From an uncultured Pseudomonadota bacterium (lineage in GTDB: Bacteria > Pseudomonadota > Gammaproteobacteria > Methylococcales > Methylomonadaceae): a stretch of DNA of 57,059 nt. The notes below the pieces were generated by a model, which worked only from the letters and a program-made list of their open reading frames with translations, had not been told where the DNA came from and did no database searches. Position 1 is the stretch's first letter. Each line of letters starts with the position of its first letter. Below, in pieces: positions 1 through 13,000 of the stretch. The stretch is taken from the NCBI GenBank assembly GCA_903875455.1, contig CAIQWF010000206.1:1-57059 (forward strand), read 5' to 3'. The position numbers and the translations under genes are program-made.

Positions 1-3000
1 GCGAGATTATTCTCGATGGTGGCAATAGTGGTGTCGTGCAGGTAAATGGTAAGCTAGACGTTAGCGGCAATAATAGCGGCGGTACGATTAAAGTTCTTGC
101 GGACATGGAAAACGGCACTGTGAGTGTCGGAGGGGTATTGGATGCTTCTGCACCGAATAGCGGCAACGGAGGTTTTATTGAAACATCGGCAGCGCATGTA
201 AGCGTGGCTGATTCTGCTAAAGTCAGCACTTTAGCGGCAAATGGTGCAACCGGAAATTGGGTAATTGATCCGATTGATTTCACCATTACGGCTGGCAATG
301 CTCCGCAAACTGTTTCTGGCATGGGCGCAGATGTGCTTTCAGCCAGCTTGGCCAATAGCAACGTCACCATTAGCACCGATACCTCAACAACAGGCAATGG
401 CGATATTTTCGTCAATGCTGCCATCAGCAAAACTTCCGGTATTGACACTATTCTGACACTGAACGCCTATCGTAATATTGATGTCAACGCAAATATTGGC
501 TCTACTTCTGGCAAACTGAATATGGTTTTTAATGCAGATACAGCAAATTCAGGCACTGGAGCTATCAATCTTGGCAATGTCACCTTGGATACTAAAGGAG
601 GGACAATTAATGCCGCAGCAGAAACGGTAAATATCAACCCAGGTGCAACAACAAATTTAAAATCTCCACTCAATGTTGCAAAGCTTAATATTGTTAATAG
701 CACACTTAACAGTAATAGTGCTACGACTGTGAGTAATGCGTTGTTTTTAAACGATGGCACTCTGGCAGGTACAGGGACTACGGTGGTTAACCTAGGCGGC
801 ACATTGACTATGTCTGGAGGTGTACTTGATGCCCAAACCTTGACATTAAATTCAACTGCAACTGGCAGTACGTGGACAGGCGGAACGACTCGCTTTTCCA
901 ATAACCCAACCTTCAATAACCAGGGAACTTTTGCACTACAGGGAAATGGTCAATTTGGCTGGGGCAATAATGGAGTTTTCAACAATTTCGGTACGTTGAT
1001 TCGTGATACCACCGGTACGGGCACTGCTGAAATTTATTCCGCTTTCAACAACACCGGCGCAGTCCACCTACTAAATACAGGTTCTTTAAGCCTGTTAAAT
1101 GGTGGGAATTCTAGCGGCGACTTTACCGAAGCTGCGGGAACCACGCTGACCTTTGGCAATTATTCAGGAGGTACCACGAATTTAACCGGCACTATCAGCG
1201 GTTCGGGTAATATTGCGTTTGAACGTGCCAAGTTTGTACTTAATGGCAGTTATAGTTTGTCAGGCGATATGACTGTTGCCACTTACAGTACGGTTGATTT
1301 TAAAGCTAACAGCATTACCACTCCCAATCTCACCGTTTCCAGTGGCAGCAGACTTATCGATACAGGTAGTATTACAGTAAAAAACGTCCTTAACCTAAAC
1401 GATGGTACTTTGGCAGGCGCAGGCTCTACAGTAGTCAATTCTGGCGGCACACTAACAATTAATGGCGGCGGACTTGATACCCAAACTTTGACATTAAGCT
1501 CCGGTGCAACCGGTGAATGGACAGACGGCACAGTTCGTTTTGCCAATAATCCAACCTTTAATAACCAAGGCACCTTTACACTAAAAGCTAATGACTATTT
1601 TGGCTGGGGCAATAATGGAGTTTTCAACAATTTCGGTACGTTGATTCGTGATACCACCGGTACGGGCACTGCTGAAATTTATTCCACTTTCAACAACACC
1701 GGCGTAGTCAACCTAAATACAGGTTCTTTAAGCCTGTTAAATGGTGGGAATTCTAGCGGCGACTTTACCGAAGCTGCGGGAACCACGCTGACCTTTGGCA
1801 ATTATTCAGGAGGTACCACGAATTTAACCAGCGCTGCCAAAATCACCGGTTTGGGCAATATTGCATTCAGTCATGCTACTTTTGTGCTGGATGGATATTA
1901 TAGCTTGCCCGGTGATATGACTGTCACCGATAACAGCATCGTTGATTTTAAAAACAACGACATTAACACTCCTAATCTCACCATTTCCAACTGGTCTAAT
2001 CTTGTCAATAATAAAACAGTCACAGTCAATAAATCCCTCAACTTGATCAACAGCGGTTTTTTGTCAGGTACTGGGAGCACAATAGTCAATTCCGGCGGCA
2101 CACTAACAATTAATGGCGGTATTCTTGATGCTCAAACCTTAACATTAAGTTCAGGTGCAACAGGGCAATGGACGGGAGGAACTTTTTATTTTGCAAATAA
2201 CCCAACCTTCAATAACCAAGGCAGTTTTACTCTACTAGCAAATGACCATTTTGGCTGGTGCTGCAATGATGGCATTTTCAATAACTCAGCCAATTTGATT
2301 GTAGATGTCGGCACTGGCGGTATTGCTGAAATCAATTCTTCATTCAATAGCACCGGGATAATAAACTTAAAATCTGGCTCCTTAAGCTTGCCATTTAATA
2401 TCTCCAGCAGTAACTTTTTGAGCAACGTGTTGAACGCCTCAAAGGATTCCACCTTTAATCTTTTAACCAGCAATATCGATAATATTCCACTTGGCGCCAT
2501 AGTAGCTGCGCAAAAATTTGGCTTAGGAGAAAATCACAGTAACCACTCCAGCAATAATCCGACGATATATGATGCAAGTAATAGTTTCGATCCCGAATCC
2601 AGAGGGATGAATGCGCTTTTTGGAGAGAGTAACGGCCAGCTTATCCATCCGACCCTGACTGTACAAAACAGTGCCGGACGGGTGCAAAGTCTGCAAATGA
2701 GCGCCAATAAACAATTTTTATCATTATTGCTGGAAGACGGTTCGGTTCGAGTATGGGATTTTCAGACCGGAGTCCAACGGCAGATTAATACCCAAGGCCA
2801 GCAATTATTAACTGACATCAGCGGGGTAGATGATAAAGGCGAATTAGTGTCAGTTGCCGGCAAAAAAGGTATTGGTGCTTACGATATGATTGGCGCAAGT
2901 GCCAACCTGATTATCGACAAGAATGATGCCAATCATTTTGCCTCATCCAGTGATGGCAAGCTGTTATTTCTCAATACCGGAACAAATGGCCTGAGTTTGT

Positions 3001-4871
3001 GGGATACCAAGCAAAATAACCAATTGTGGCAATCCTCTTATCAGCGTGGCGAAGTGACTAATCTGGCATTAAGCAGTAATCAGCGATACGGTGCGGTATT
3101 AGGCTACCAGCAAGGCGCTTATATGCTCTCTGCTGATTTGGAACTAAAACCGTTAATCGATGCTGTAGACATTGTTGATTTAACTTCTGGAAAAATCCTC
3201 AAATCCTTACCGAATTTAGGCGACCCGATTATTCATATCCGGTTTAAGGATAACGATACTTTAGAACTCGGCTTGGCCAGTGGGCAAATAGTGGACTGGT
3301 CTATTGCCGCGCAAACGCCAAAAATAGTTGCTGATTTTGCAGAAGCCATCACTGCGGTTGATGTGGCTAACGATACCTACGCCTATATTCTTAATGATGG
3401 CACGGTTCAGGTTGGTAATGGCCAAGGACAAGTTCAGTTAAGTGTCAAAAACAAGGAAAATCCATTTCAAAAAGCTCTGCTGCTGGAAGAAGGTAAAAAG
3501 TTGCTCGCCATTATGGCCAACGGTGATATGTCTGTTTGGGATGTGGCCTCGGCAAAAAAAATGCTGCGTTTATTTTCCACGCGCGATGGCTGGATAGTGA
3601 TGGATGCCTTTGGCCGTTTTGATGGCTCAGAAGAAGCTTTGGATCATTTCAGCTGGTCAGCGAATGATGAAAATATTCCATTGGATAATTTTTCTGAAAA
3701 TTATTACGAACCCGGTTTATTAACCAACGTGTTGCAAAATCAGGATTACTTAAATGGCAGTCTTAACGCGGTTATGGCTGGATTCACTCTGCCGCCAAAA
3801 CTCAATTTGCAGCTGGCCAATCAACAAGTTCAGGGAGATAAGGTCAAATTAGAAGTCGATATTTATGATCGTGGCGGCGGCATTAACAAAATTCAGGTAT
3901 TCCACAATGGCAAGGCCCTTGATAATGACAGCGTGATTTCCAACCAGAAAATTCAGGAAGAAAATGATGGCGAACATCGGACTTTTACTTTGAATATCAG
4001 CCCAAGCGCCGGTAAAAACACTATTCAGGTAGCGGCCAGCAATGAAATGGGCATTGAAAATAACAGTGCCGAATTAAGCTTTGACGGAAAAAGTAAGGCT
4101 TACGTCTCAGACATCAAACTTTTTACCGTGGGAATCAATGAATACAGCGACAAACGCTTAAACCTGTCTTATAGCGTTGCTGATGCAGCCTCGATTGCTC
4201 AGGTGATGAAAAATCATGCAAAAATTGCCAACAGTAAAAATTTGTATGACCAACATGCCACCAAAACCAAAATTTTGGCCGAACTTAAGGAGTTAAGCCA
4301 GGGCGCGCAAAAAGATGTTCTGGTTATTTACTTTGCCGGACATGGCATGGTTCTGGGCAAGGAATGGTACTTTTTGCCTCATGAAACCAAGCTTCAGGGT
4401 TCCCGGGAAAAACTCGTCGAATCAGGCATCACGGCTACAGAGTTAGGGGAAATTTTCAAAAAATCAAAAATACAGCATATCCTGTTAATGGTTGACTCCT
4501 GTTATTCAGGAGCAGGAATGGATACTTTTACCCAACTGGAAAACAGACAACGTTATGTAACCCGGCAATTGAGTCGATCTTTGGGAATTACCGTGATTAC
4601 TGCCGCTGCCAGAGATCAACAAGCTGCGGAGCTGAAAAGTCTGGGACATGGATTGTTTACCTATTTGGTAACTCAAGAACTGCAAAAGCAGAATGGAAAA
4701 GAGCCGGTTACCGCCCACAACATCAAGGAAAAAATTGAAAAAGAATTGCCGGCTTTTTCCAGAAAAATGGTAGGAATCACTCAGGAACCAGCCGCTTATA
4801 CCCATGGTAATGATTTTCTGTTGATAGACGCAATCAAAAAAACGGCCAAAACCACACCGCCTCTGAAATAA
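1..4871 (+). CDS. TpsA-like beta-helix / WD40-like propeller / caspase-fold exoprotein, copy 1 (5' end outside window)
   Basis: The reading frame is open from base 3, upstream of the first in-window Met (base 36), so the gene starts outside the window. The first bases match bases 5780 onward of the next gene in frame, which places the missing part as the ESPR signal and TPS domain. Bases 1-2600 encode Asn/Gly/Thr-rich beta-helix repeats including three copies of a unit of about 215 residues. From about 2640 to 3660 lies a WD40-like propeller (motif VRVWDF), then an Ig-like sandwich (about 3790-4090), then a caspase/peptidase C14 fold (about 4110-4835). The catalytic dyad is visible: His in FAGHG (codon 4341) and Cys in DSCYSG (codon 4500). 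Inferred role: a secreted or surface-bound cysteine protease. It sits 46 bp before its paralogue, so the two probably form an operon. No TpsB transporter is visible. Confidence 0.85.
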   Translation, partial: EIILDGGNSGVVQVNGKLDVSGNNSGGTIKVLADMENGTVSVGGVLDASAPNSGNGGFIETSAAHVSVADSAKVSTLAANGATGNWVIDPIDFTITAGNAPQTVSGMGADVLSASLANSNVTISTDTSTTGNGDIFVNAAISKTSGIDTILTLNAYRNIDVNANIGSTSGKLNMVFNADTANSGTGAINLGNVTLDTKGGTINAAAETVNINPGATTNLKSPLNVAKLNIVNSTLNSNSATTVSNALFLNDGTLAGTGTTVVNLGGTLTMSGGVLDAQTLTLNSTATGSTWTGGTTRFSNNPTFNNQGTFALQGNGQFGWGNNGVFNNFGTLIRDTTGTGTAEIYSAFNNTGAVHLLNTGSLSLLNGGNSSGDFTEAAGTTLTFGNYSGGTTNLTGTISGSGNIAFERAKFVLNGSYSLSGDMTVATYSTVDFKANSITTPNLTVSSGSRLIDTGSITVKNVLNLNDGTLAGAGSTVVNSGGTLTINGGGLDTQTLTLSSGATGEWTDGTVRFANNPTFNNQGTFTLKANDYFGWGNNGVFNNFGTLIRDTTGTGTAEIYSTFNNTGVVNLNTGSLSLLNGGNSSGDFTEAAGTTLTFGNYSGGTTNLTSAAKITGLGNIAFSHATFVLDGYYSLPGDMTVTDNSIVDFKNNDINTPNLTISNWSNLVNNKTVTVNKSLNLINSGFLSGTGSTIVNSGGTLTINGGILDAQTLTLSSGATGQWTGGTFYFANNPTFNNQGSFTLLANDHFGWCCNDGIFNNSANLIVDVGTGGIAEINSSFNSTGIINLKSGSLSLPFNISSSNFLSNVLNASKDSTFNLLTSNIDNIPLGAIVAAQKFGLGENHSNHSSNNPTIYDASNSFDPESRGMNALFGESNGQLIHPTLTVQNSAGRVQSLQMSANKQFLSLLLEDGSVRVWDFQTGVQRQINTQGQQLLTDISGVDDKGELVSVAGKKGIGAYDMIGASANLIIDKNDANHFASSSDGKLLFLNTGTNGLSLWDTKQNNQLWQSSYQRGEVTNLALSSNQRYGAVLGYQQGAYMLSADLELKPLIDAVDIVDLTSGKILKSLPNLGDPIIHIRFKDNDTLELGLASGQIVDWSIAAQTPKIVADFAEAITAVDVANDTYAYILNDGTVQVGNGQGQVQLSVKNKENPFQKALLLEEGKKLLAIMANGDMSVWDVASAKKMLRLFSTRDGWIVMDAFGRFDGSEEALDHFSWSANDENIPLDNFSENYYEPGLLTNVLQNQDYLNGSLNAVMAGFTLPPKLNLQLANQQVQGDKVKLEVDIYDRGGGINKIQVFHNGKALDNDSVISNQKIQEENDGEHRTFTLNISPSAGKNTIQVAASNEMGIENNSAELSFDGKSKAYVSDIKLFTVGINEYSDKRLNLSYSVADAASIAQVMKNHAKIANSKNLYDQHATKTKILAELKELSQGAQKDVLVIYFAGHGMVLGKEWYFLPHETKLQGSREKLVESGITATELGEIFKKSKIQHILLMVDSCYSGAGMDTFTQLENRQRYVTRQLSRSLGITVITAAARDQQAAELKSLGHGLFTYLVTQELQKQNGKEPVTAHNIKEKIEKELPAFSRKMVGITQEPAAYTHGNDFLLIDAIKKTAKTTPPLK

Positions 4872-4917
4872 CAAGCCGCTACTTTCCCTTAAATGTCCGA
4901 ATCAGGTAAATAGATAC

Positions 4918-7900
4918 ATGAACCACAGCTATCGCAGCATTTGGAGTGAATCATTAGGTACTTGGATAGCTGTTTGTGAAAACAGCAAACGCAGAGGAAA
5001 GCGTAGCACTTCAGTTTGTCATAAATTATTAGCAACCAGTTTATTGATGTGCTCTGTCAATGGCTGGGCGTTGCCAAGCGGTGAGCAGGTTGTCGCCGGG
5101 CAAGTGAATGTTGCCAAACCAAATACCGGGCAGATGCAAATCAACCAGAGCAGCCAGCAGGCTATTGTCAACTGGCAGGGCTTTTCAATTAACGCTAACG
5201 AGAGCGTCAACATTCAACAACCGAATGCCAGCGCCACCTTGCTTAACCGGGTGATAGGCATGGACGCCAGCGTAATACAAGGTCAACTTAATGCCAACGG
5301 CCAGGTTTATTTAGTCAATCCAAACGGCGTGTTGTTTAGCAAAACCGCGCAGGTCGATGTCGGCGGTTTGGTTGCGACAACGCATAACCTCAGCAATGCC
5401 GATTTTTTAAACGGCAATCTTCATTTTACTCAGGACAATGCCAACGGCACCATTAGTAATCAGGGTTTCATTAAAACCCCGGAAGGTGGTGTAGTTGCGT
5501 TAATTGGCATACAAGTCAGCAATGAAGGAACCATTGAAACACCCAAAGGCTCAACCATTCTGGCAGCAGGCAAGACGGTTGATATGGATTTGAAAGGCGA
5601 TGGCCTGGTTGAAGTTAAGGTGCCAGAAGCTGTGTTAAATGCCCAGATTAATAATAAAGGCGCAATTTTGGCTGATGGTGGCCGGGTGGTTTTGACCGCG
5701 CAAGCCGCCGGGCAATTGACCGAAACAGTGCTGAATTCTGAAGGGTTGATACAGGCAAAAAGCTTGGTTGACCGCAACGGCGAGATTATTCTCGATGGTG
5801 GCAATAGTGGTGTCGTGCAGGTAAATGGTAAGCTAGACGTTAGCGGCAATAATAGCGGCGGTACGATTAAAGTTCTTGCGGACATGGAAAACGGCACTGT
5901 GAGTGTCGCAGGGGTATTGGATGCTTCTGCACCGAATAGCGGAAACGGAGGTTTTATTGAAACTTCGGCAGCGCATGTGAATATTGCTGATTCAGCAAAA
6001 ATCACCACTCAAGCAAATAATGGCAAAACTGGCTTGTGGGTTATTGACCCCTTTGATTTCAACATAGCTGCCAGTGGCGGCGACATTACCGGTTTAGCTC
6101 TTGGCACAATGTTGGATAGCAATAGTGTCATGATTAGTACAATTGCCGGAACCAATACAGCGACAAATCTTTATGCCTCAACAGCTGGAAATGGCGATAT
6201 TTTTGTTAATGATACAGTTAGTTGGTCGTCAAATAACATACTTACTTTATCAGCTTGGCGCAATATTTATATTAATGCAAACATCAGCGGCTCTGGAACA
6301 GCATCAAAACTGAACCTTTCTTATGGTCAAAGCAGTACTAATGGCGGGCTTGATGATAATTATTTTCTGGATAACGGAGCGAAAGTTAATTTACCAGCCG
6401 GTGTAAATTTTTTCACCCAAAAAGGAGCAGATACTGCCAATTTGAAAAGTTACACGGTCATCACTGATTTAGGCATTGTTAATGATGCAAGCAGTACATC
6501 TTTACAGGGAATTAAAAATAATTTGGCTGGTTATTATGCGCTAGGGGCAAATATTAACGCATCAGTAACATCTGGTTGGACTTCAGCAACTGGCACAGGA
6601 TTTGAGCCAATTGGCACAGATCCTTATATGTTTACCGGACAATTTCATGGTTTAGGGCATTCAATTTCATCATTGACTATACATACTAATGTTAGTAGGA
6701 ATGCCTCCGGCTGGTGGGTTGATGTTGGTTTGTTTGGAGATGTTAGTACTGGTGGAATAGTGCGAGATGTCGGTTTAGTTGATGCTGCGGTGAGCTCCCC
6801 TAGCTCAGGTGGGCACTTTGCAGGTGCACTGGTTGGATACAATTTTGGTAATATTTTCAACTCATACGCAATGAGTGGTGTTATTGGATTTAGTGGCGCT
6901 AGTGATGTTGGCGGATTGGTAGGAAATAATATCGGCACTATTAGCAATTCTTATGCAACAGGTAGCGTAAATGGCACTAGTGCTATTGGCGGACTGGCAG
7001 GTAGAAACAGCGGGACGATTACCAATTCTTATGCAACAGGTAGTATTAGTGGTTCTAGTTATGTTGGTGGGTTAGTTGGAGCTAACTCTGGTAGTATTAA
7101 AAACACCTACACAACAGGCAGTGTTAGTGGTTCTAGTTATGTTGGCGGACTGGTGGGGTACAACGGCAGTACTGTCGACAACTCCTATTTTGACCAAACC
7201 AAGAATCCAACTCTTAATGCAATAGGTAATAATGTTGGAACTTTAGTCAATGTTGCTGGCAAAACTACAGATCAAATGATGCAAGCAAGCACCTTTGCAG
7301 CTTGGGGAAGTGATATTAGCTCAACAGGAGGAAGCTCTGCTATTTGGCGAATTTATGAAGGCAACACTTATCCTTTATTACGTAGTTTTCTAACACCTTT
7401 AACTCTTGCAAATACAACTGTAAGTTATAACGCCACTCCTCAGTACGGCATTTTCACCAGCGGAATGTCAGGTTCTGCTGCTACCGGTACAGACCCAGGC
7501 TTTTACAATAATAACTATTTTTCCGCCCAGCAAGGCTTTGATATTAGCGGAGGAAATTTAACCATTACCACCGACAATCCTGTTGCAAATTCAATTTCGA
7601 GCATAATCACGACACTGCAAACGACAACTTCTCTTCCTCCTGTATCCACAGGACAAAGTAGCACAGGAGCTATTACTCTAATAGAACCCGCTATCCTCGA
7701 CACTACCAGTGATTTTTCCGGTAATGCTAATCCAGCTGCTTCGCCTTCGCCCTCACCCAGCAGCAACCCATTAATCACTGTTTTGTCCATACAAGAAAGC
7801 AGCAGTCCGCTTATTCAACCGGTACTCACCATCCAAAACAGCGCAGGAAAAGTAAAACAGTTGCAACTGAGTGCCAACCGGCAGTTTTTGTCCTTATTGC

Positions 7901-10053
7901 TGGAAGATGGCTCAGTCCGGGTCTGGGACTTTCAGCGCGGTATGCAGCGGCAAATTGTGAATCAAAACCTGTCACTGACAAACATTAGCGCAGTTGATGA
8001 CAATGGCGAGTTGATTTCAATTGCCACCCCAGCAGAAATTAATGCTTACGATGTCATCAGCGCAAGTTCTGACGCTTCTGTGAAAGAATCTGAGATTAAC
8101 CATTTTGTCACCTCCAACGACGGCAGCCTGCTGTTACTCAACAGCGGCAATAACAACGTCACTTTGCGGAATAACAAACAAAACCAGAAAATTTGGCAAC
8201 TGCCCTATCAGCGCGGCACAATCGAAAATCTGGCATTAACCGACAACAAACATTATGCCGCAATACTCGCTCGGACAAATGGCTCGTACCAGATTCCCCC
8301 TAATCTGCAATTAAACTCCCTGACCGATGCTCTCGATCTTGTTGACCTTAAAACCGGCAAAATCATCAACTCCTTACCCAACCTGGGTGAACAGGTTGTT
8401 TATCTGCGTTTTAAAGACAACAACACCTTGCAGATAGGACTCAGCACCGGCGAAATACTGCACTGGTCTATCACCGGCAAGCAACTCAAAACCGTTGCCA
8501 ACCTGGCCGAAACCATTACCGCCATGGATACCGACAAAGACATCTACACTTACATTCGCAAGGACGGCACGGTGCGGGTTGTTAATGCCGAAGGTCAGAT
8601 TCAGCTAAGCATTAAAAACAGGGAAAATCCGGTTCAACATGCTCTTTTACTGGAAAACGGAAAACAATTGCTAACCGTGTTGGCCAGCGGCGATTTGGCT
8701 CTCTGGAATATCGGCGCGGGCAAAAAAGTATTGCGGCTGTTTTCAACCCGGCAAGGCTGGACAGTGATGGATGCGTTCGGGCGTTTTGATGGTTCGGAAG
8801 AGTCGCTGGAAAACTTTACCTGGTTAGCCAATGAAGAAGATATTCCGCTGGATAGTTTTTCTGAAAACTATTATGAGCCGGGATTATTGGCCAACGTCAT
8901 CCAAAATCAGGATTATCTGAATGATGCCACACTTAACGCGGTCAAAAACGGTATTCGTCTGCCGCCTAAAGTAAATTTACAGTTAGCCGACCAGCAGGGC
9001 GCAAATGACAGCGTGACATTGCAATTAGACCTTTATGATCGCGGCGGCGGTATTAACAAGGTGCAGGTTTATCATAACGGCAAACTTCTCAACACTGAAA
9101 AGGTGATTGTGGCTCAGCAAATAATGGAAGAGAACAACAGCGAACACCGTGTCCTGACTTTGAATATTACCCCCAGCCCCGGCAAAAACAGCCTTAAAGT
9201 CACGGCCAGCAACAATATGGACATTGAAAATGGCAGCAGCGAATTAAGTTTTGATGGCAAAACCAAAGCCTACACCTCACAAATCCGCCTTCTGACTGTT
9301 GGCATTAACCGCTACAGCGATCAAAATCTTAATTTGGCTTATAGCGTCCCGGATGCCCAATCCATTGCCGAAACCTTAAAAAACTATTCAAAAGTCGCTG
9401 TCAGCAAAAGCCTGTATAACGAAAATGCCACCAAAACCAAAATTCTGGCGGAACTTAAAGAATTAAGCCAGGGTTCGCAGCAGGATGTACTGGTGGTTTA
9501 TTTTGCCGGACACGGTATCGCCTCCGGTAAGGAGTGGTACTTTTTGCCGCACGAAACCCGGTTGCATCCAACTTTGGAACAAATCACCGCCACCGGCATT
9601 ACCGCCAGCGAATTAAGCGAGATTTTTAAATACTCGAAAATACAGCATATTCTGCTAATGGTGGATGCTTGTTATTCAGGTGCGGGCATGGATGCTTTTG
9701 GCAAATTGCAAAACGGTCAGCGTTATTTTTCCCGGCAACTCAGTCGTTCCTTGGGGATTACCGTCGTCACCGCGTCGGCAAAAAATCAGGAAGCCTCAGA
9801 GCTGGAAAGCCTTGGACATGGCTTGTTTACCTATTTGATGACTCAGGAGTTGCGGAAAAAGGATGTGAATGAACCGATCACGGCACATGGGATTGCGAAA
9901 AAAATGGTTAAAACCTTGCCGATTTTGTCGCAAAAACTGATAGGTTCCAGCCAGGATCCGGCTGCCTATACTCATGGCAGTGATTTCATCTTGACTAGCC
10001 AGGCTAAAGAATCCACTTCGGACAGCGCAGAAAAAAATAACGCCGAACCGTAA
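4918..10053 (+). CDS. TpsA-like exoprotein with GLUG repeats, WD40-like propeller and caspase domain, copy 2 (complete)
   Basis: This 1711-residue protein starts with an extended signal peptide (ESPR-like, residues 1-30, pattern YRSIWSESLGTW). A hydrophobic segment and a likely cleavage site after NGWA (near residue 51) follow. Residues about 52-290 are a haemagglutination-activity/TPS secretion domain with the NPNG motif near residue 136. The stalk carries GLUG-type repeats (about 630-760, pattern VGGLVG...NSYATGS), then a Ser/Pro linker (SPSPSPSS). The WD40-like propeller (about 970-1295), an Ig-like domain and a caspase fold (about 1456-1690) complete it. His1532 (FAGHG) and Cys1585 (DACYSG) are intact. 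By family knowledge the TPS domain directs export through a TpsB pore, which is not in the window. The propeller-Ig-caspase half is very similar to copy 1, while the stalk differs. The substrate is unknown. Confidence 0.9.
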   Translation: MNHSYRSIWSESLGTWIAVCENSKRRGKRSTSVCHKLLATSLLMCSVNGWALPSGEQVVAGQVNVAKPNTGQMQINQSSQQAIVNWQGFSINANESVNIQQPNASATLLNRVIGMDASVIQGQLNANGQVYLVNPNGVLFSKTAQVDVGGLVATTHNLSNADFLNGNLHFTQDNANGTISNQGFIKTPEGGVVALIGIQVSNEGTIETPKGSTILAAGKTVDMDLKGDGLVEVKVPEAVLNAQINNKGAILADGGRVVLTAQAAGQLTETVLNSEGLIQAKSLVDRNGEIILDGGNSGVVQVNGKLDVSGNNSGGTIKVLADMENGTVSVAGVLDASAPNSGNGGFIETSAAHVNIADSAKITTQANNGKTGLWVIDPFDFNIAASGGDITGLALGTMLDSNSVMISTIAGTNTATNLYASTAGNGDIFVNDTVSWSSNNILTLSAWRNIYINANISGSGTASKLNLSYGQSSTNGGLDDNYFLDNGAKVNLPAGVNFFTQKGADTANLKSYTVITDLGIVNDASSTSLQGIKNNLAGYYALGANINASVTSGWTSATGTGFEPIGTDPYMFTGQFHGLGHSISSLTIHTNVSRNASGWWVDVGLFGDVSTGGIVRDVGLVDAAVSSPSSGGHFAGALVGYNFGNIFNSYAMSGVIGFSGASDVGGLVGNNIGTISNSYATGSVNGTSAIGGLAGRNSGTITNSYATGSISGSSYVGGLVGANSGSIKNTYTTGSVSGSSYVGGLVGYNGSTVDNSYFDQTKNPTLNAIGNNVGTLVNVAGKTTDQMMQASTFAAWGSDISSTGGSSAIWRIYEGNTYPLLRSFLTPLTLANTTVSYNATPQYGIFTSGMSGSAATGTDPGFYNNNYFSAQQGFDISGGNLTITTDNPVANSISSIITTLQTTTSLPPVSTGQSSTGAITLIEPAILDTTSDFSGNANPAASPSPSPSSNPLITVLSIQESSSPLIQPVLTIQNSAGKVKQLQLSANRQFLSLLLEDGSVRVWDFQRGMQRQIVNQNLSLTNISAVDDNGELISIATPAEINAYDVISASSDASVKESEINHFVTSNDGSLLLLNSGNNNVTLRNNKQNQKIWQLPYQRGTIENLALTDNKHYAAILARTNGSYQIPPNLQLNSLTDALDLVDLKTGKIINSLPNLGEQVVYLRFKDNNTLQIGLSTGEILHWSITGKQLKTVANLAETITAMDTDKDIYTYIRKDGTVRVVNAEGQIQLSIKNRENPVQHALLLENGKQLLTVLASGDLALWNIGAGKKVLRLFSTRQGWTVMDAFGRFDGSEESLENFTWLANEEDIPLDSFSENYYEPGLLANVIQNQDYLNDATLNAVKNGIRLPPKVNLQLADQQGANDSVTLQLDLYDRGGGINKVQVYHNGKLLNTEKVIVAQQIMEENNSEHRVLTLNITPSPGKNSLKVTASNNMDIENGSSELSFDGKTKAYTSQIRLLTVGINRYSDQNLNLAYSVPDAQSIAETLKNYSKVAVSKSLYNENATKTKILAELKELSQGSQQDVLVVYFAGHGIASGKEWYFLPHETRLHPTLEQITATGITASELSEIFKYSKIQHILLMVDACYSGAGMDAFGKLQNGQRYFSRQLSRSLGITVVTASAKNQEASELESLGHGLFTYLMTQELRKKDVNEPITAHGIAKKMVKTLPILSQKLIGSSQDPAAYTHGSDFILTSQAKESTSDSAEKNNAEP

Positions 10054-10071
10054 GGCAGGTTTTTATCTACA

Positions 10072-13000
10072 TTAGATTTCATTCACGGCCCGCCACACCG
10101 GCAAAACAACCTGTTCGCAGAAATCGACAAAATCATCGCCCAACAAGACAGAAAAATCGGTCATCGCTCCATATAAACGTTGCAGTTCAGGTTCGTAATC
10201 CTGTTCCAGACTCAAGATTAATTTTTCCTGCGCAAATTGCAGCGCCGGTTTTTGCGCCCTGCTGCTATTTTCCAGGGTATAGGTCTGTTTTACATAATCC
10301 AGCACACTCTCGGTAAATAACGCATCGGGGCGCTGCTGCCCTTGCAAATAAATCCGCAAAAATTCGCCCAGCATCTCGGCAGTGATTATTTCAGGCGGGA
10401 AAACCAGCAGCCCATCCAGGCTCAGCAAATAGCCGGTATGCGGCTGAGTCTGATTTAACAAACCAAGTTGCAATAAAGCGTTGAGTAAATCTTTGCCTTT
10501 TAATTTGGCAAAACGATAAAACAGACAGCCGTTTTCATAGCGATTGCCGAGTTTGCCGACTAAGCGAAAATCGCCAAAGTTTAAATCAACGGCCAAATCG
10601 GCAATTTTTTCGCCCAGATTCAAGGAGTTTATCCTGTCGACAAATTCTGTAATCCTAGTTTCCTGACGCCTAAATTCCATCTCCCCCATCACCCCGGACA
10701 ACCAGCGGCCCTGCGCTTGCAGTTTTGCGACCTCAAAGTTTTCGCCGTTCAATAACACATTAATCCAGTCGTGATTAATCGCGTAACTTTCCAAGCCTTC
10801 TATCGAAAACGGCTCACGCTCTTCGGGGTCTGCCTCTAAAGTTTCCAAGCGCAAATCCAGTTGCCGGCGTAAAAAATAGCGTTGCGGATGGCGATAAAAC
10901 GCGAACAAATCGGCCAGTTCAATGAGATGATTGCTTTCTGTCTCAATTGCACCTTGCCACCAGATTTTAAGTTCCGGCTTCAGTGCATTTAACGCCAACG
11001 CCGTTTCATAATCGGCTTTGGCATAACTAAACAGTTTTGGGTCTGCACCGCTAAAATAGCGCTGGCTGAACGGTTGCAGCGGCTGCTTAATCACCACGTC
11101 TTTTAGCTGATATTCAAATTCCAGCACCTCCAGCAGTTCACTAATCACCACCGACGGTGGAATGCTCTGATTTTGCGCCAGGGATTGGCCGATATAGGTC
11201 ATAATCAACTGTTGCCGCGCTGACAATAATAATTCCAGAAATTGTTGCCGGTCATCGCTGCGTTGCGACGGGTCGCCCGGACGGACATTTTCTGCCAGCA
11301 AATCAAAAGTCGGATGTTTATCGGCGCGGGGAAAGTCACCGTCATTCATGCCCAGCACCGCGATAACCTGAAACGGAATTCCGCGTACCGCCGTGATGGA
11401 ACAGAAAGTTAATGAGCCGCGCAACAAACCGCTGGCGGATTTTTGTTCAGAGATGGCCTGTTCCAGCCAGTGGATAATCACCGTCAGTTCCAGCGGATAT
11501 TGATGCACTGCGGTAAATTTTTCGGCAAAATCAGCCAATAACTCATTGAGCTGCTGCCGTTCACCGGGATTAATTTGTCCGAACAATAAATCTGCGTAGT
11601 GAAAAAGCTGTTCGCTCCATGCCTGCAAGGTTCTGGGCTGGGTTAAAGTTTCACTTGCGCTGAAAAGTAGCGAGATAAAATCACACAAACCGCCTAAAGC
11701 CTGTGCCGATGAGCCTTCCAAGTCTTTATACGGCAACACATTATCAACAAAACTTTCATCATCACCGACTGCATACCCCATCAGCAAGCGTTCCAGACTT
11801 TGCCGCCAGGTATTTTCGGCGAATGGCGGCAATCCCAGCTGCTGCTTATGTTCGGCAGATTTACCCCAGCGGACATGAGTATCGTTTAACCAGTGTTTCA
11901 CCAGTTCCAGATCAGCTTCGGATAAATCAAAGTTAGGGTAAACGTTGGGCTGTTCCAATAAATCCAGCACGGCCTGCCAGCCAAAACGACTGCGGCAAAG
12001 CTTTAGAAAGCTGACAAAACTATTCAATACGCCATTGCTTAATTGCAAACCGCGTCCGGCAATGTGATGCGGAATGTCGGAAAAAACAGCGCTGATAAAA
12101 GGCGCGTAAACCTGAATATCTGGAGCGGTGACAATACAGTCCCGCAGTTGCAGGGCAGAATTATTTTCCAGTGTTTGCAAAAGCTGGTTTTTTAACACTT
12201 CAACTTCGCGCATTCTGGAATGGCAGGCGTGAATGCTGATTGAGTCATCATTGGGATAAAACTTCCAGTTTTTTGCAGTCTCGATGCGCTGAAGCTGGGA
12301 TAAATCATGCTGGAATTGTTGCAGAACGGTGTGTGGCTCAGAACTCGCAGAAAGGCAAAACTTTGCCTCTTTGTCCTGATTTTGCCTGACTAAAGCTTGT
12401 CCAAACTCAAGTCCTTGCTGCCCTAAACTGGCCAATAACGGATGCAGGGTTGCGGCATTGCTTTCCAGAGCCGGTAACGGATTCAGCCAGTAAAAATGCA
12501 CTTCACAATGGGCGGCAATGGCGTTTAAAAACGCTAACCACAAAGGTGGCAAATTGCTGACTGCAAACACAAACAACCGCTGCGGCAATTGATATTTCAG
12601 CGCCTCTGCCGAACTGTGTTTCAGTTTATCTATCGCCTGCTGCCACAACAACCCTTGATGAGCTTCACCGCATTGGGCGGTGATTTTTTGCCACAAGGCT
12701 TGCTGCCAAGATTCGGCTGAGTTTTGGGTTTGCAAGAAGCCCTGCTGCCAGTTCGCCAGTAACTCAGGGCGCAGCAATTGATAGTTTTGAAACAGCCGCG
12801 CCAGTTGTGTTGCCAGCTGATAACGTTTAACGCCGTTATTTTCGCCGCTGAGATATTGTTTGATGGGCAGAAAAACCGCATCGTCTATCTCATGCAGCAA
12901 ACCTTCCAGCCGCCATAACATCAGTTCGGCATCAAAATCAGGATTGTGCAAACTGCTGTCTATTTTTCGCGCCAGCTGTCTGAAAAAAGGTTCCGGCAGC

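What the first reader, a model, noticed from the sequence alone, without database searches (positions are those of the whole stretch)
1..10053. Tandem pair of secreted TpsA-propeller-caspase fusion proteins
Two adjacent genes encode proteins of the order beta-helix stalk, WD40-like propeller, Ig-like domain and C-terminal caspase fold with intact His and Cys. The complete one also has an ESPR signal and a TPS domain. Propeller-plus-caspase proteins are known as intracellular signalling proteins in bacteria. Their attachment to a two-partner-secretion exoprotein would place a caspase-type protease outside the cell or on its surface. I know of no described system of this kind. It could act in contact-dependent killing, self-recognition, surface proteolysis or programmed cleavage of its own stalk.
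Basis: partly seen in the sequence, partly recalled or inferred. Interest (0 to 1): 0.9.

Follow-up and report, generated by a model that had tools for sequence, protein, structure and literature searches.

The report
Surface-exported caspase-like proteases in methanotrophs
Methane-eating bacteria carry giant proteins built to be pushed out of the cell with a caspase-like cutting enzyme at the tip, which would move an enzyme fold best known from cell death and signalling inside cells to the bacterial surface.

Summary
Gene 2 (4918-10053, 1711 aa) has ESPR, TPS domain, GLUG-type stalk, WD40 propeller, Ig-like domain and a C-terminal C14 caspase domain. Gene 1 (3-4871) is the same type; its TPS start lies on contig C231, which overlaps the window start by 113 bp. 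It is not an assembly artefact: the own genome has four such genes; its taxonomic family has 19 long-form modules in 12 of 237 genomes, with tandem pairs in two others. Eight of 16 loci lie beside a gene of one TpsB subfamily. Catalytic His, Cys and two presumed S1 Asp are invariant in all 33 modules aligned. The fusions form one clade (100/100) among 14 shorter homologues, many with a Sec-like start by eye. The most fusion-specific conserved stretch (rank 1 of 723 windows) is a flexible Lys-bearing linker, FDGKTKAY, directly before the caspase. Best reading: a TPS exoprotein presenting an Arg/Lys-specific caspase-like protease outside the cell, possibly self-cleaving at that linker. Contact-dependent toxin delivery is unlikely (conserved C-terminus, no general immunity gene). 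A second TPS-caspase fusion lineage turned up in other Gammaproteobacteria. Activity and location are untested; I found no description of the fusion in the open library.

The parts
3..4871 (+). Gene 1: 5'-truncated (contig start) TpsA-propeller-Ig-caspase; 1622 aa on this contig, ESPR-TPS start on contig C231
1..113 (+). Exact overlap with the end of contig C231 (the same 113 bases also occur at 5780 inside gene 2)
2691..4868 (+). Gene 1 propeller-Ig-caspase module
4080..4091 (+). Gene 1 linker motif FDGK (FDGKSKAY) between Ig-like domain and caspase
4128..4796 (+). Gene 1 C14 caspase domain; catalytic His 4341-4343, Cys 4500-4502
4918..10053 (+). Gene 2: complete 1711-aa TpsA-propeller-Ig-caspase, starts 46 bp after gene 1
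4918..5043 (+). ESPR (extended signal peptide region)
5074..5820 (+). TPS secretion domain
5821..7836 (+). Stalk, beta-helix type inferred, with GLUG repeats; very variable in length among homologues
7837..8823 (+). WD40-type beta-propeller (about residues 974-1302)
8953..9249 (+). Ig-like domain (about residues 1346-1444)
9250..9273 (+). Fusion-specific linker FDGKTKAY (residues 1445-1452), candidate self-cleavage site
9292..9873 (+). C14 caspase domain (Pfam span); His1532 at 9511-9513, Cys1585 at 9670-9672, Asp1583 and Asp1479 of the presumed S1 pocket

Best explanation
A two-partner-secretion (type Vb) exoprotein that carries a caspase-fold cysteine protease. Proposed steps: (1) ESPR and Sec take the protein across the inner membrane and a TpsB of the C17/C243 subfamily recognises the TPS domain and threads it through the outer membrane [inferred from domains and tpsB neighbours]; (2) the stalk folds outside and carries the C-terminal propeller-Ig-caspase module to or beyond the cell surface [inferred]; (3) the WD40 propeller binds a target or ligand and the caspase domain cuts after Lys/Arg [dyad and acidic residues seen in sequence, fold predicted; activity inferred]; (4) the conserved flexible linker FDGKTKAY just before the caspase is a self-processing site that activates or releases the protease [inferred]. 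The most likely job is proteolysis of surface, matrix or neighbour-cell proteins, or timed release of the protease or stalk, rather than delivery of a toxin into another cell.
For: ESPR, TPS and C14 in one ORF. 15 of 19 long-form modules lie in an ORF with a TPS match (one of them partial); of the other 4, gene 1 has its TPS on C231, one has it in the preceding overlapping ORF, two are cut by contig ends. TpsB gene beside 8 of 16 loci; these eight are 47-83% identical to each other and 55-69% to own C243, against 18-21% to the TpsBs of the own TPR-CHAT loci. Own genome: 4 such proteins. His1532, Cys1585, Asp1583, Asp1479 in 19 of 19 long and 14 of 14 short modules. VIA-align ranks MALT1 and metacaspases at the top; both cut after basic residues (PMC4357240, passages). 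Purifying selection on the caspase: dN/dS 0.04-0.14 in 6 of 6 pairs that I chose. One clade beside shorter, probably exported homologues. FDGKTKAY ranks 1 of 723 windows for fusion-specific conservation and falls on a low-confidence loop of both models. A second TPS-C14 lineage exists elsewhere.
Against: No activity, secretion or processing data. No tpsB next to the window pair, and none seen at 8 of 16 loci (some cut by contig ends); the tpsB beside L042 is broken into two frames and L031's is separated by another TPS gene. Foldseek, unlike VIA-align, puts human caspases (Asp-specific) first for the same model. The C-terminus of some TpsA proteins stays in the periplasm (recalled for FhaB and CdiA), so surface exposure of the caspase is not certain. 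The linker could be an interdomain contact or ligand loop instead of a cleavage site; it was noticed before it was ranked, and two of 19 rows lack its first Lys (L032a, L038). The S1 Asp were assigned by a weak alignment (E 0.008), not by a bound structure.
Confidence: 0.5

Rival explanations
1. Contact-dependent inhibition-type toxin: the caspase is a C-terminal toxin delivered into neighbouring cells, with a cognate immunity protein.
For: TPS exoprotein with a C-terminal protease; C-terminal caspase-like domains were predicted as toxins in polymorphic toxin systems (PMC3482391, section 11). A pair of small genes (one with a signal-like start, one with hydrophobic stretches) lies beside the fusion at 3 of 16 loci, on the opposite strand.
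Against: C-terminal module conserved (median 63% identity over 14 complete proteins, range 56-98%), about as much as the TPS domain; no pretoxin domain in Pfam; among the same-strand ORFs of 40 aa or more starting within 400 nt of the 19 fusion ends, tpsB is the only evident recurrent gene; the small pair's second gene matches at E <= 1e-5 in 4 of 12 fusion genomes and 1 of 20 others, one in each group weakly; shorter homologues exist outside any TPS.
Confidence: 0.1
2. The caspase stays in the periplasm (as the FhaB prodomain or CdiA C-terminus are held) and acts as a periplasmic signalling or death protease, with the stalk outside as sensor.
For: Closest homologues are short proteins, several with Sec-like starts by eye, so the ancestral module probably worked in the periplasm; the stalk varies from 309 to 2915 aa while the module does not, as expected if only the stalk meets the outside.
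Against: Several TpsA proteins are secreted whole (recalled); no transmembrane or periplasm-anchoring signal was searched for.
Confidence: 0.25
3. The caspase works only on its own protein: it is a built-in maturation protease that trims the C-terminus and releases or anchors the stalk; it has no other substrate.
For: Fusion-specific Lys linker; some TpsA proteins are matured by proteases whose genes lie outside the TPS operon (PMC5422565, passages).
Against: The module also exists without the fusion and has a propeller, which suggests other binding partners.
Confidence: 0.2
4. Assembly artefact or decayed genes.
For: Draft of 265 contigs; the first gene is cut at a 113-bp repeat; L037 is split into two frames.
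Against: Long form in 12 genomes, including a 1.74-Mb contig (L032) and three others over 80 kb (L031, L036, L040); low dN/dS.
Confidence: 0.01

Closest known systems
LepA/LepB of Pseudomonas aeruginosa (TPS-secreted protease; LepA listed in PMC5422565, passages)
   Same: TPS exoprotein whose effector is a protease; trypsin-like, cleaving after Arg (recalled)
   Different: Serine protease, not clan CD (recalled); no propeller-Ig-caspase module (recalled)
C-terminal caspase toxins and releasing caspases of polymorphic toxins (Zhang et al. 2012, PMC3482391, section 11 and passages)
   Same: Exported multidomain protein with a caspase-like domain, some at the C-terminus
   Different: That section names T7SS, PVC, TcdB/TcaC and T2SS for caspase toxins, not T5SS; here the C-terminus is conserved and no general immunity gene was found
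Bacterial WD40-caspase (meta/orthocaspase) proteins (Asplund-Samuelsson et al. 2012, PMC3501461, abstract and passages; cyanobacterial survey PMC8283722, passages)
   Same: C14 plus WD40, the commonest accessory domain in both surveys
   Different: 'agglutin' has 0 hits in both texts, so no haemagglutinin/TPS architecture is named under that word
MALT1 paracaspase
   Same: Top of the structural list (Z 23.8, rmsd 2.5, 211 aligned); Ig-like domains next to the caspase domain
   Different: 15% identity; MALT1 has a death domain and Ig domains on both sides (PMC4357240, passages), here one Ig-like domain before the caspase and an export apparatus
Gingipains and clostripain (exported clan CD proteases; PMC3482391 section 11 and PMC4357240 passages)
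   Same: Exported bacterial clan CD proteases
   Different: Families C25 and C11; here family C14 with a TPS secretion domain

Membership tests
TpsA exoprotein (type Vb) | TPS secretion domain near the N-terminus | tested here: met
   PF05860 E 3.3e-33, residues 53-301; TIGR01901 E 6.2e-21
TpsA exoprotein (type Vb) | Extended signal peptide or Sec signal before the TPS domain | tested here: met
   PF13018 ESPR E 1e-11, residues 1-42
TpsA exoprotein (type Vb) | Cognate TpsB transporter gene | tested here: met
   Beside 8 of 16 homologous loci, including own C17; not on C206 or C231
TpsA exoprotein (type Vb) | Beta-helical stalk | tested here: inconclusive
   GLUG repeats; stalk not modelled
Family C14 peptidase (caspase/metacaspase/paracaspase) | Caspase/haemoglobinase fold | tested here: met
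   PF00656 E 2.7e-14; predicted fold matches Z 20-24
Family C14 peptidase (caspase/metacaspase/paracaspase) | Catalytic His and Cys | tested here: met
   33 of 33 modules
C14B (basic P1 specificity) | Acidic S1 residues (Asp at Cys-2 and on helix 1) | tested here: met
   Asp1583 and Asp1479 in 33 of 33; both align with Asp of metacaspase-4 (weak, E 0.008); not shown in a structure
C14B (basic P1 specificity) | Cleavage after Arg/Lys | not testable with these tools
   needs an assay
CDI/CdiA toxin | Sharply variable C-terminal toxin | tested here: not met
   module identity median 63%, range 56-98%, 14 proteins
CDI/CdiA toxin | Immunity gene directly downstream | tested here: not met
   Gene 2 has no same-strand ORF of 40 aa or more (ATG start) within 400 nt; over 19 fusion ends tpsB is the only evident recurrent one. 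A small gene pair on the opposite strand recurs at 3 of 16 loci
LepA-type TPS protease | Trypsin-like serine protease domain | tested here: not met
   no such Pfam match up to E 0.1; C14 instead

The most novel reading that the evidence does not exclude
A self-cleaving exported caspase: when an ancestral periplasmic propeller-caspase was fused to a TpsA stalk in methanotrophs, it gained a Lys-bearing recognition loop (FDGKTKAY) directly before the protease domain, so the exoprotein carries its own caspase-type maturation protease and releases or switches on the enzyme at the cell surface. TPS-exported caspases would then be a recurrent kind, having arisen at least twice with distant caspase subfamilies.
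Probability: 0.3. Interest if true: 0.82.

Novelty: new variant of a known kind. Interest (0 to 1): 0.72.

Why it matters
Bacterial caspase homologues are mostly discussed as intracellular death or signalling proteases, with few known substrates (general knowledge). Here the genetics suggests a direction: the enzyme is built to leave the inner cell, with a matching transporter family. That makes substrate hunting tractable (culture supernatant and surface proteins), gives a sharp testable cleavage site, and offers a clear case of a periplasmic-type caspase recruited to a secretion stalk. A second recruitment in other Gammaproteobacteria suggests that exported caspases may be a wider bacterial strategy.

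Tried and rejected
Rejected: assembly artefact (recurrence); catalytically dead domain (33 of 33 dyads intact; low dN/dS, though dS exceeds 1 in four of the six pairs); CDI toxin. Led nowhere: sequence search of the PDB with the Ig-caspase profile gave only weak metacaspase matches (best E 0.0082); the plasmid collection has 216 records with a match to gene 2, none covering 80% of it; the phylum-wide PF00656 survey (128 of 398 genomes) listed only its best matches, so long ORFs could not be picked out there. Ten literature searches: nine aimed at the fusion or its parts and one at S1 pockets; I judged them by their listings, which show no paper on a TPS-caspase fusion, and the library lacks most subscription papers. 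VIA-align of the whole module was filled by propellers, so the C-terminal part was folded and searched alone. Membrane topology of the C-terminus was not tested. A class-wide search with the propeller-caspase profile was not run; outside the order it was sought only by the pattern scan.

Limits of counts: one search scored at most 4 candidates a genome and at most 7, so copies can be missed. In one search the near-duplicate row L036 was left out of the fusion set (18 rows). Identity figures use 14 complete proteins of 19. L048 (weak, Armatimonadetes) was left out of alignments, conservation counts and tree. The linker was spotted in the alignment first and ranked afterwards. Of the C14 matches only those with frames of 1000 aa or more (14 loci, own genome apart) were fetched, so shorter TPS-caspase proteins would be missed. 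Neighbour clustering used ORFs of 90 aa or more in 18 entries, two of which (L035, L087) are one locus; one search looked at same-strand ORFs from 40 aa, ATG starts only.

Full report
OBSERVATION. The window is a whole contig (C206, 57059 bp) of a draft genome of 3.49 Mb in 265 contigs. Gene 1 (3-4871, open at the contig start) and gene 2 (4918-10053) are read from translated ORFs. Pfam finds in gene 2 ESPR, TPS, GLUG repeats, WD40-type propeller matches and a C-terminal C14 domain, and in gene 1 the propeller and C14 parts.

THE MISSING START. Contig C231 ends in an open frame with a TPS domain, and its last 113 bases equal window 1-113. These bases also occur at 5780 in gene 2, so the break is a repeat of the kind at which assemblers stop. 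The 5' part of gene 1 is 93% identical to gene 2 in DNA (977 columns) and the likeness continues at 94.8% through window base 230; the stalks are then unlike apart from short pieces, and much of the C-terminal module is about 72% identical. The pair is therefore a mosaic: shared secretion end, exchanged stalk, more diverged effector end.

FOLD. AlphaFold2 with a 21-row alignment gives pLDDT 83.2 and pTM 0.83 for residues 954-1711; the Ig-caspase part alone gives 78.2 and 0.66. The propeller matches WD40 structures. For the C-terminal part VIA-align gives MALT1 paracaspase (Z 23.8, rmsd 2.5, 211 aligned), Arabidopsis metacaspase 9 (Z 22.0) and caspase-9 (Z 21.0); Foldseek gives human caspases first and then Ig domains. 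By sequence the PDB offers only weak metacaspase matches.

RECURRENCE. The own genome has four TPS-C14 proteins (C206 twice, C103, C17) and one shorter homologue without TPS (C64). With the module profile at E <= 1e-60, 22 of 237 genomes of the family match; within the order 22 of 311, all of them in that family. My count from the rows: 19 long-form modules in 12 genomes of 6 genera; the other 10 genomes have only the short form. Tandem pairs recur in L032 and L034. The scan of 84,980 species genomes with two short peptide patterns gave 18 loci; those outside this group (L046, L047, L048) have no TPS match in the module's ORF. The pattern scan is not exhaustive.

TPS AND TRANSPORTER. With home-made profiles, 14 of 19 long-form modules have a full TPS match in the same ORF and one a partial match (L038); gene 1 has it on C231, L037 in the preceding overlapping ORF, L033 and L041 are cut by contig ends. 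A TpsB gene lies beside 8 of 16 loci (C17, L031, L032, L035, L040, L041, L042, L044; in L031 a second TPS gene lies between, in L042 the tpsB is convergent and broken into two frames). Pfam confirmed POTRA and ShlB in the three of them scanned. These eight TpsBs are 47-83% identical to each other and 55-69% to own C243, but about 20% to the TpsBs beside TPR-CHAT genes on own C87 and C5. C243 has no TPS hit on its contig and is a candidate transporter for the window pair (inference).

ORIGIN. In a maximum-likelihood tree the 19 long-form modules form one side of a branch with support 100/100 against 14 short forms; the nearest short forms are own C64 with L043, and L069, their order unresolved. 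Many of the short forms begin with what looks like a Sec signal peptide (by eye; no predictor was run). Most simply, an exported, probably periplasmic propeller-caspase was fused once to a TpsA protein in this group. Rooting is by midpoint; the two far rows (L046, L047) have long branches.

FUNCTIONAL CONSTRAINT. His1532, Cys1585, Asp1583 (two before Cys) and Asp1479 are identical in 19 of 19 long and 14 of 14 short modules. Metacaspases and paracaspases prefer basic P1 residues, and in TbMCA2 Asp95 and Asp211 belong to the presumed S1 pocket (PMC4357240, passages); the weak alignment with metacaspase-4 places each of our two Asp on an Asp. dN/dS of the caspase region is 0.04-0.14 in 6 of 6 pairs chosen, with dS above 1 in four. 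Stalk length runs from 309 to 2915 aa while TPS (median 65%) and module (median 63%) stay conserved, over 14 complete proteins.

THE LINKER. Between Ig-like domain and caspase the long forms carry FDGKTKAY: F, D, G and the second K in 19 of 19, the first K in 17 of 19; the 14 short forms do not show it. Among 723 windows of 8 residues it ranks first for conservation in long forms minus presence in short forms (0.94 against 0.07). It also falls on a loop where both models lose confidence (residues 1449-1452 and 1449-1453). A conserved, flexible, Lys-bearing loop beside a protease with a presumed acidic S1 pocket is what a self-processing site would look like. It could also be a contact or ligand loop. 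This is inference.

A SECOND LINEAGE. Among 369 genomes drawn from the class, 68 have C14 at E <= 1e-10. Of 14 non-own loci with frames of 1000 aa or more that I fetched, three (two genomes, G426 and G631) encode TPS plus C-terminal C14, with intact dyad and no propeller match. Their caspases share 21-26% identity with ours; L100 has a TpsB gene directly upstream and L102 a weak partial match. Their own C14 subfamily is wider: 36 of 369 genomes at E <= 1e-40, but only these three proteins match over nearly the whole profile with scores near 600 bits or more. Most simply, TPS-caspase fusion has happened at least twice.

WHAT IT IS NOT. CDI proteins have abruptly variable C-termini (PMC5422565, passages) and immunity genes. 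Here the C-terminus is conserved. No gene except tpsB evidently recurs on the same strand after the 19 fusion ends. One pair of small genes recurs at 3 of 16 loci on the opposite strand; its second member matches in 4 of 12 fusion genomes and 1 of 20 others, so it is not a general partner. LepA is the known TPS protease (same paper, passages); that review has no 'caspase'. Zhang et al. 2012 name T7SS, PVC, TcdB/TcaC and T2SS for caspase toxins (section 11). Asplund-Samuelsson et al. 2012 and a cyanobacterial survey have no 'agglutin'. The listings of nine searches of the open library gave no report of the fusion (see Tried and rejected); this is not proof that none exists.

VERDICT. Architecture real and recurrent (near certain). 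Export through TpsB very likely. Arg/Lys-type protease likely. Location of the caspase outside rather than in the periplasm, and self-cleavage at the linker, are open and directly testable.

Noticed in passing
L100:1432-7137 (+), L101:120-3809 (-), L102:813-7268 (+) (other Gammaproteobacteria): Separate TPS proteins ending in a C14 domain of another subfamily, without propeller match; L100 has a TpsB gene directly upstream.
   Followed up: partly
L020:2821-3585 (+), contig C231, about 70 bp before gene 1's start: Small cyclase-like protein (phmmer to adenylate/guanylate cyclase 7r65, E 4e-9; no Pfam match over cut-off), possibly co-transcribed with the pair.
   Followed up: partly
L035:14110-16549 (-) and L040:14741-17153 (-): Next to the TpsB of two fusion loci: a two-gene set of Ser/Thr kinase with DUF4384 and an OmpA-family protein (Pfam run on L035; L040 by similarity).
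   Followed up: no
L025 (own C87) and L028 (own C5): TpsB genes beside TPR-CHAT genes; CHAT is a caspase-related domain (recalled), so the genome links caspase-fold domains to TPS in a second way.
   Followed up: no
L022:2241-3097, L034:12234-13142, L036:6148-7062: The same pair of small genes (about 115-148 aa) lies beside the fusion gene in three loci on the opposite strand; no family above cut-off for the L022 pair; second gene in 5 of 32 genomes tested.
   Followed up: yes
L105:572-5569 (+): OmpA-WD40-C14 fusion in another genome: a further possible way of placing a caspase at the envelope.
   Followed up: no
L037:4417-6456 and 6422-12142 (+): Fusion split into two overlapping frames: a frameshift in the genome or an assembly error.
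   Followed up: no
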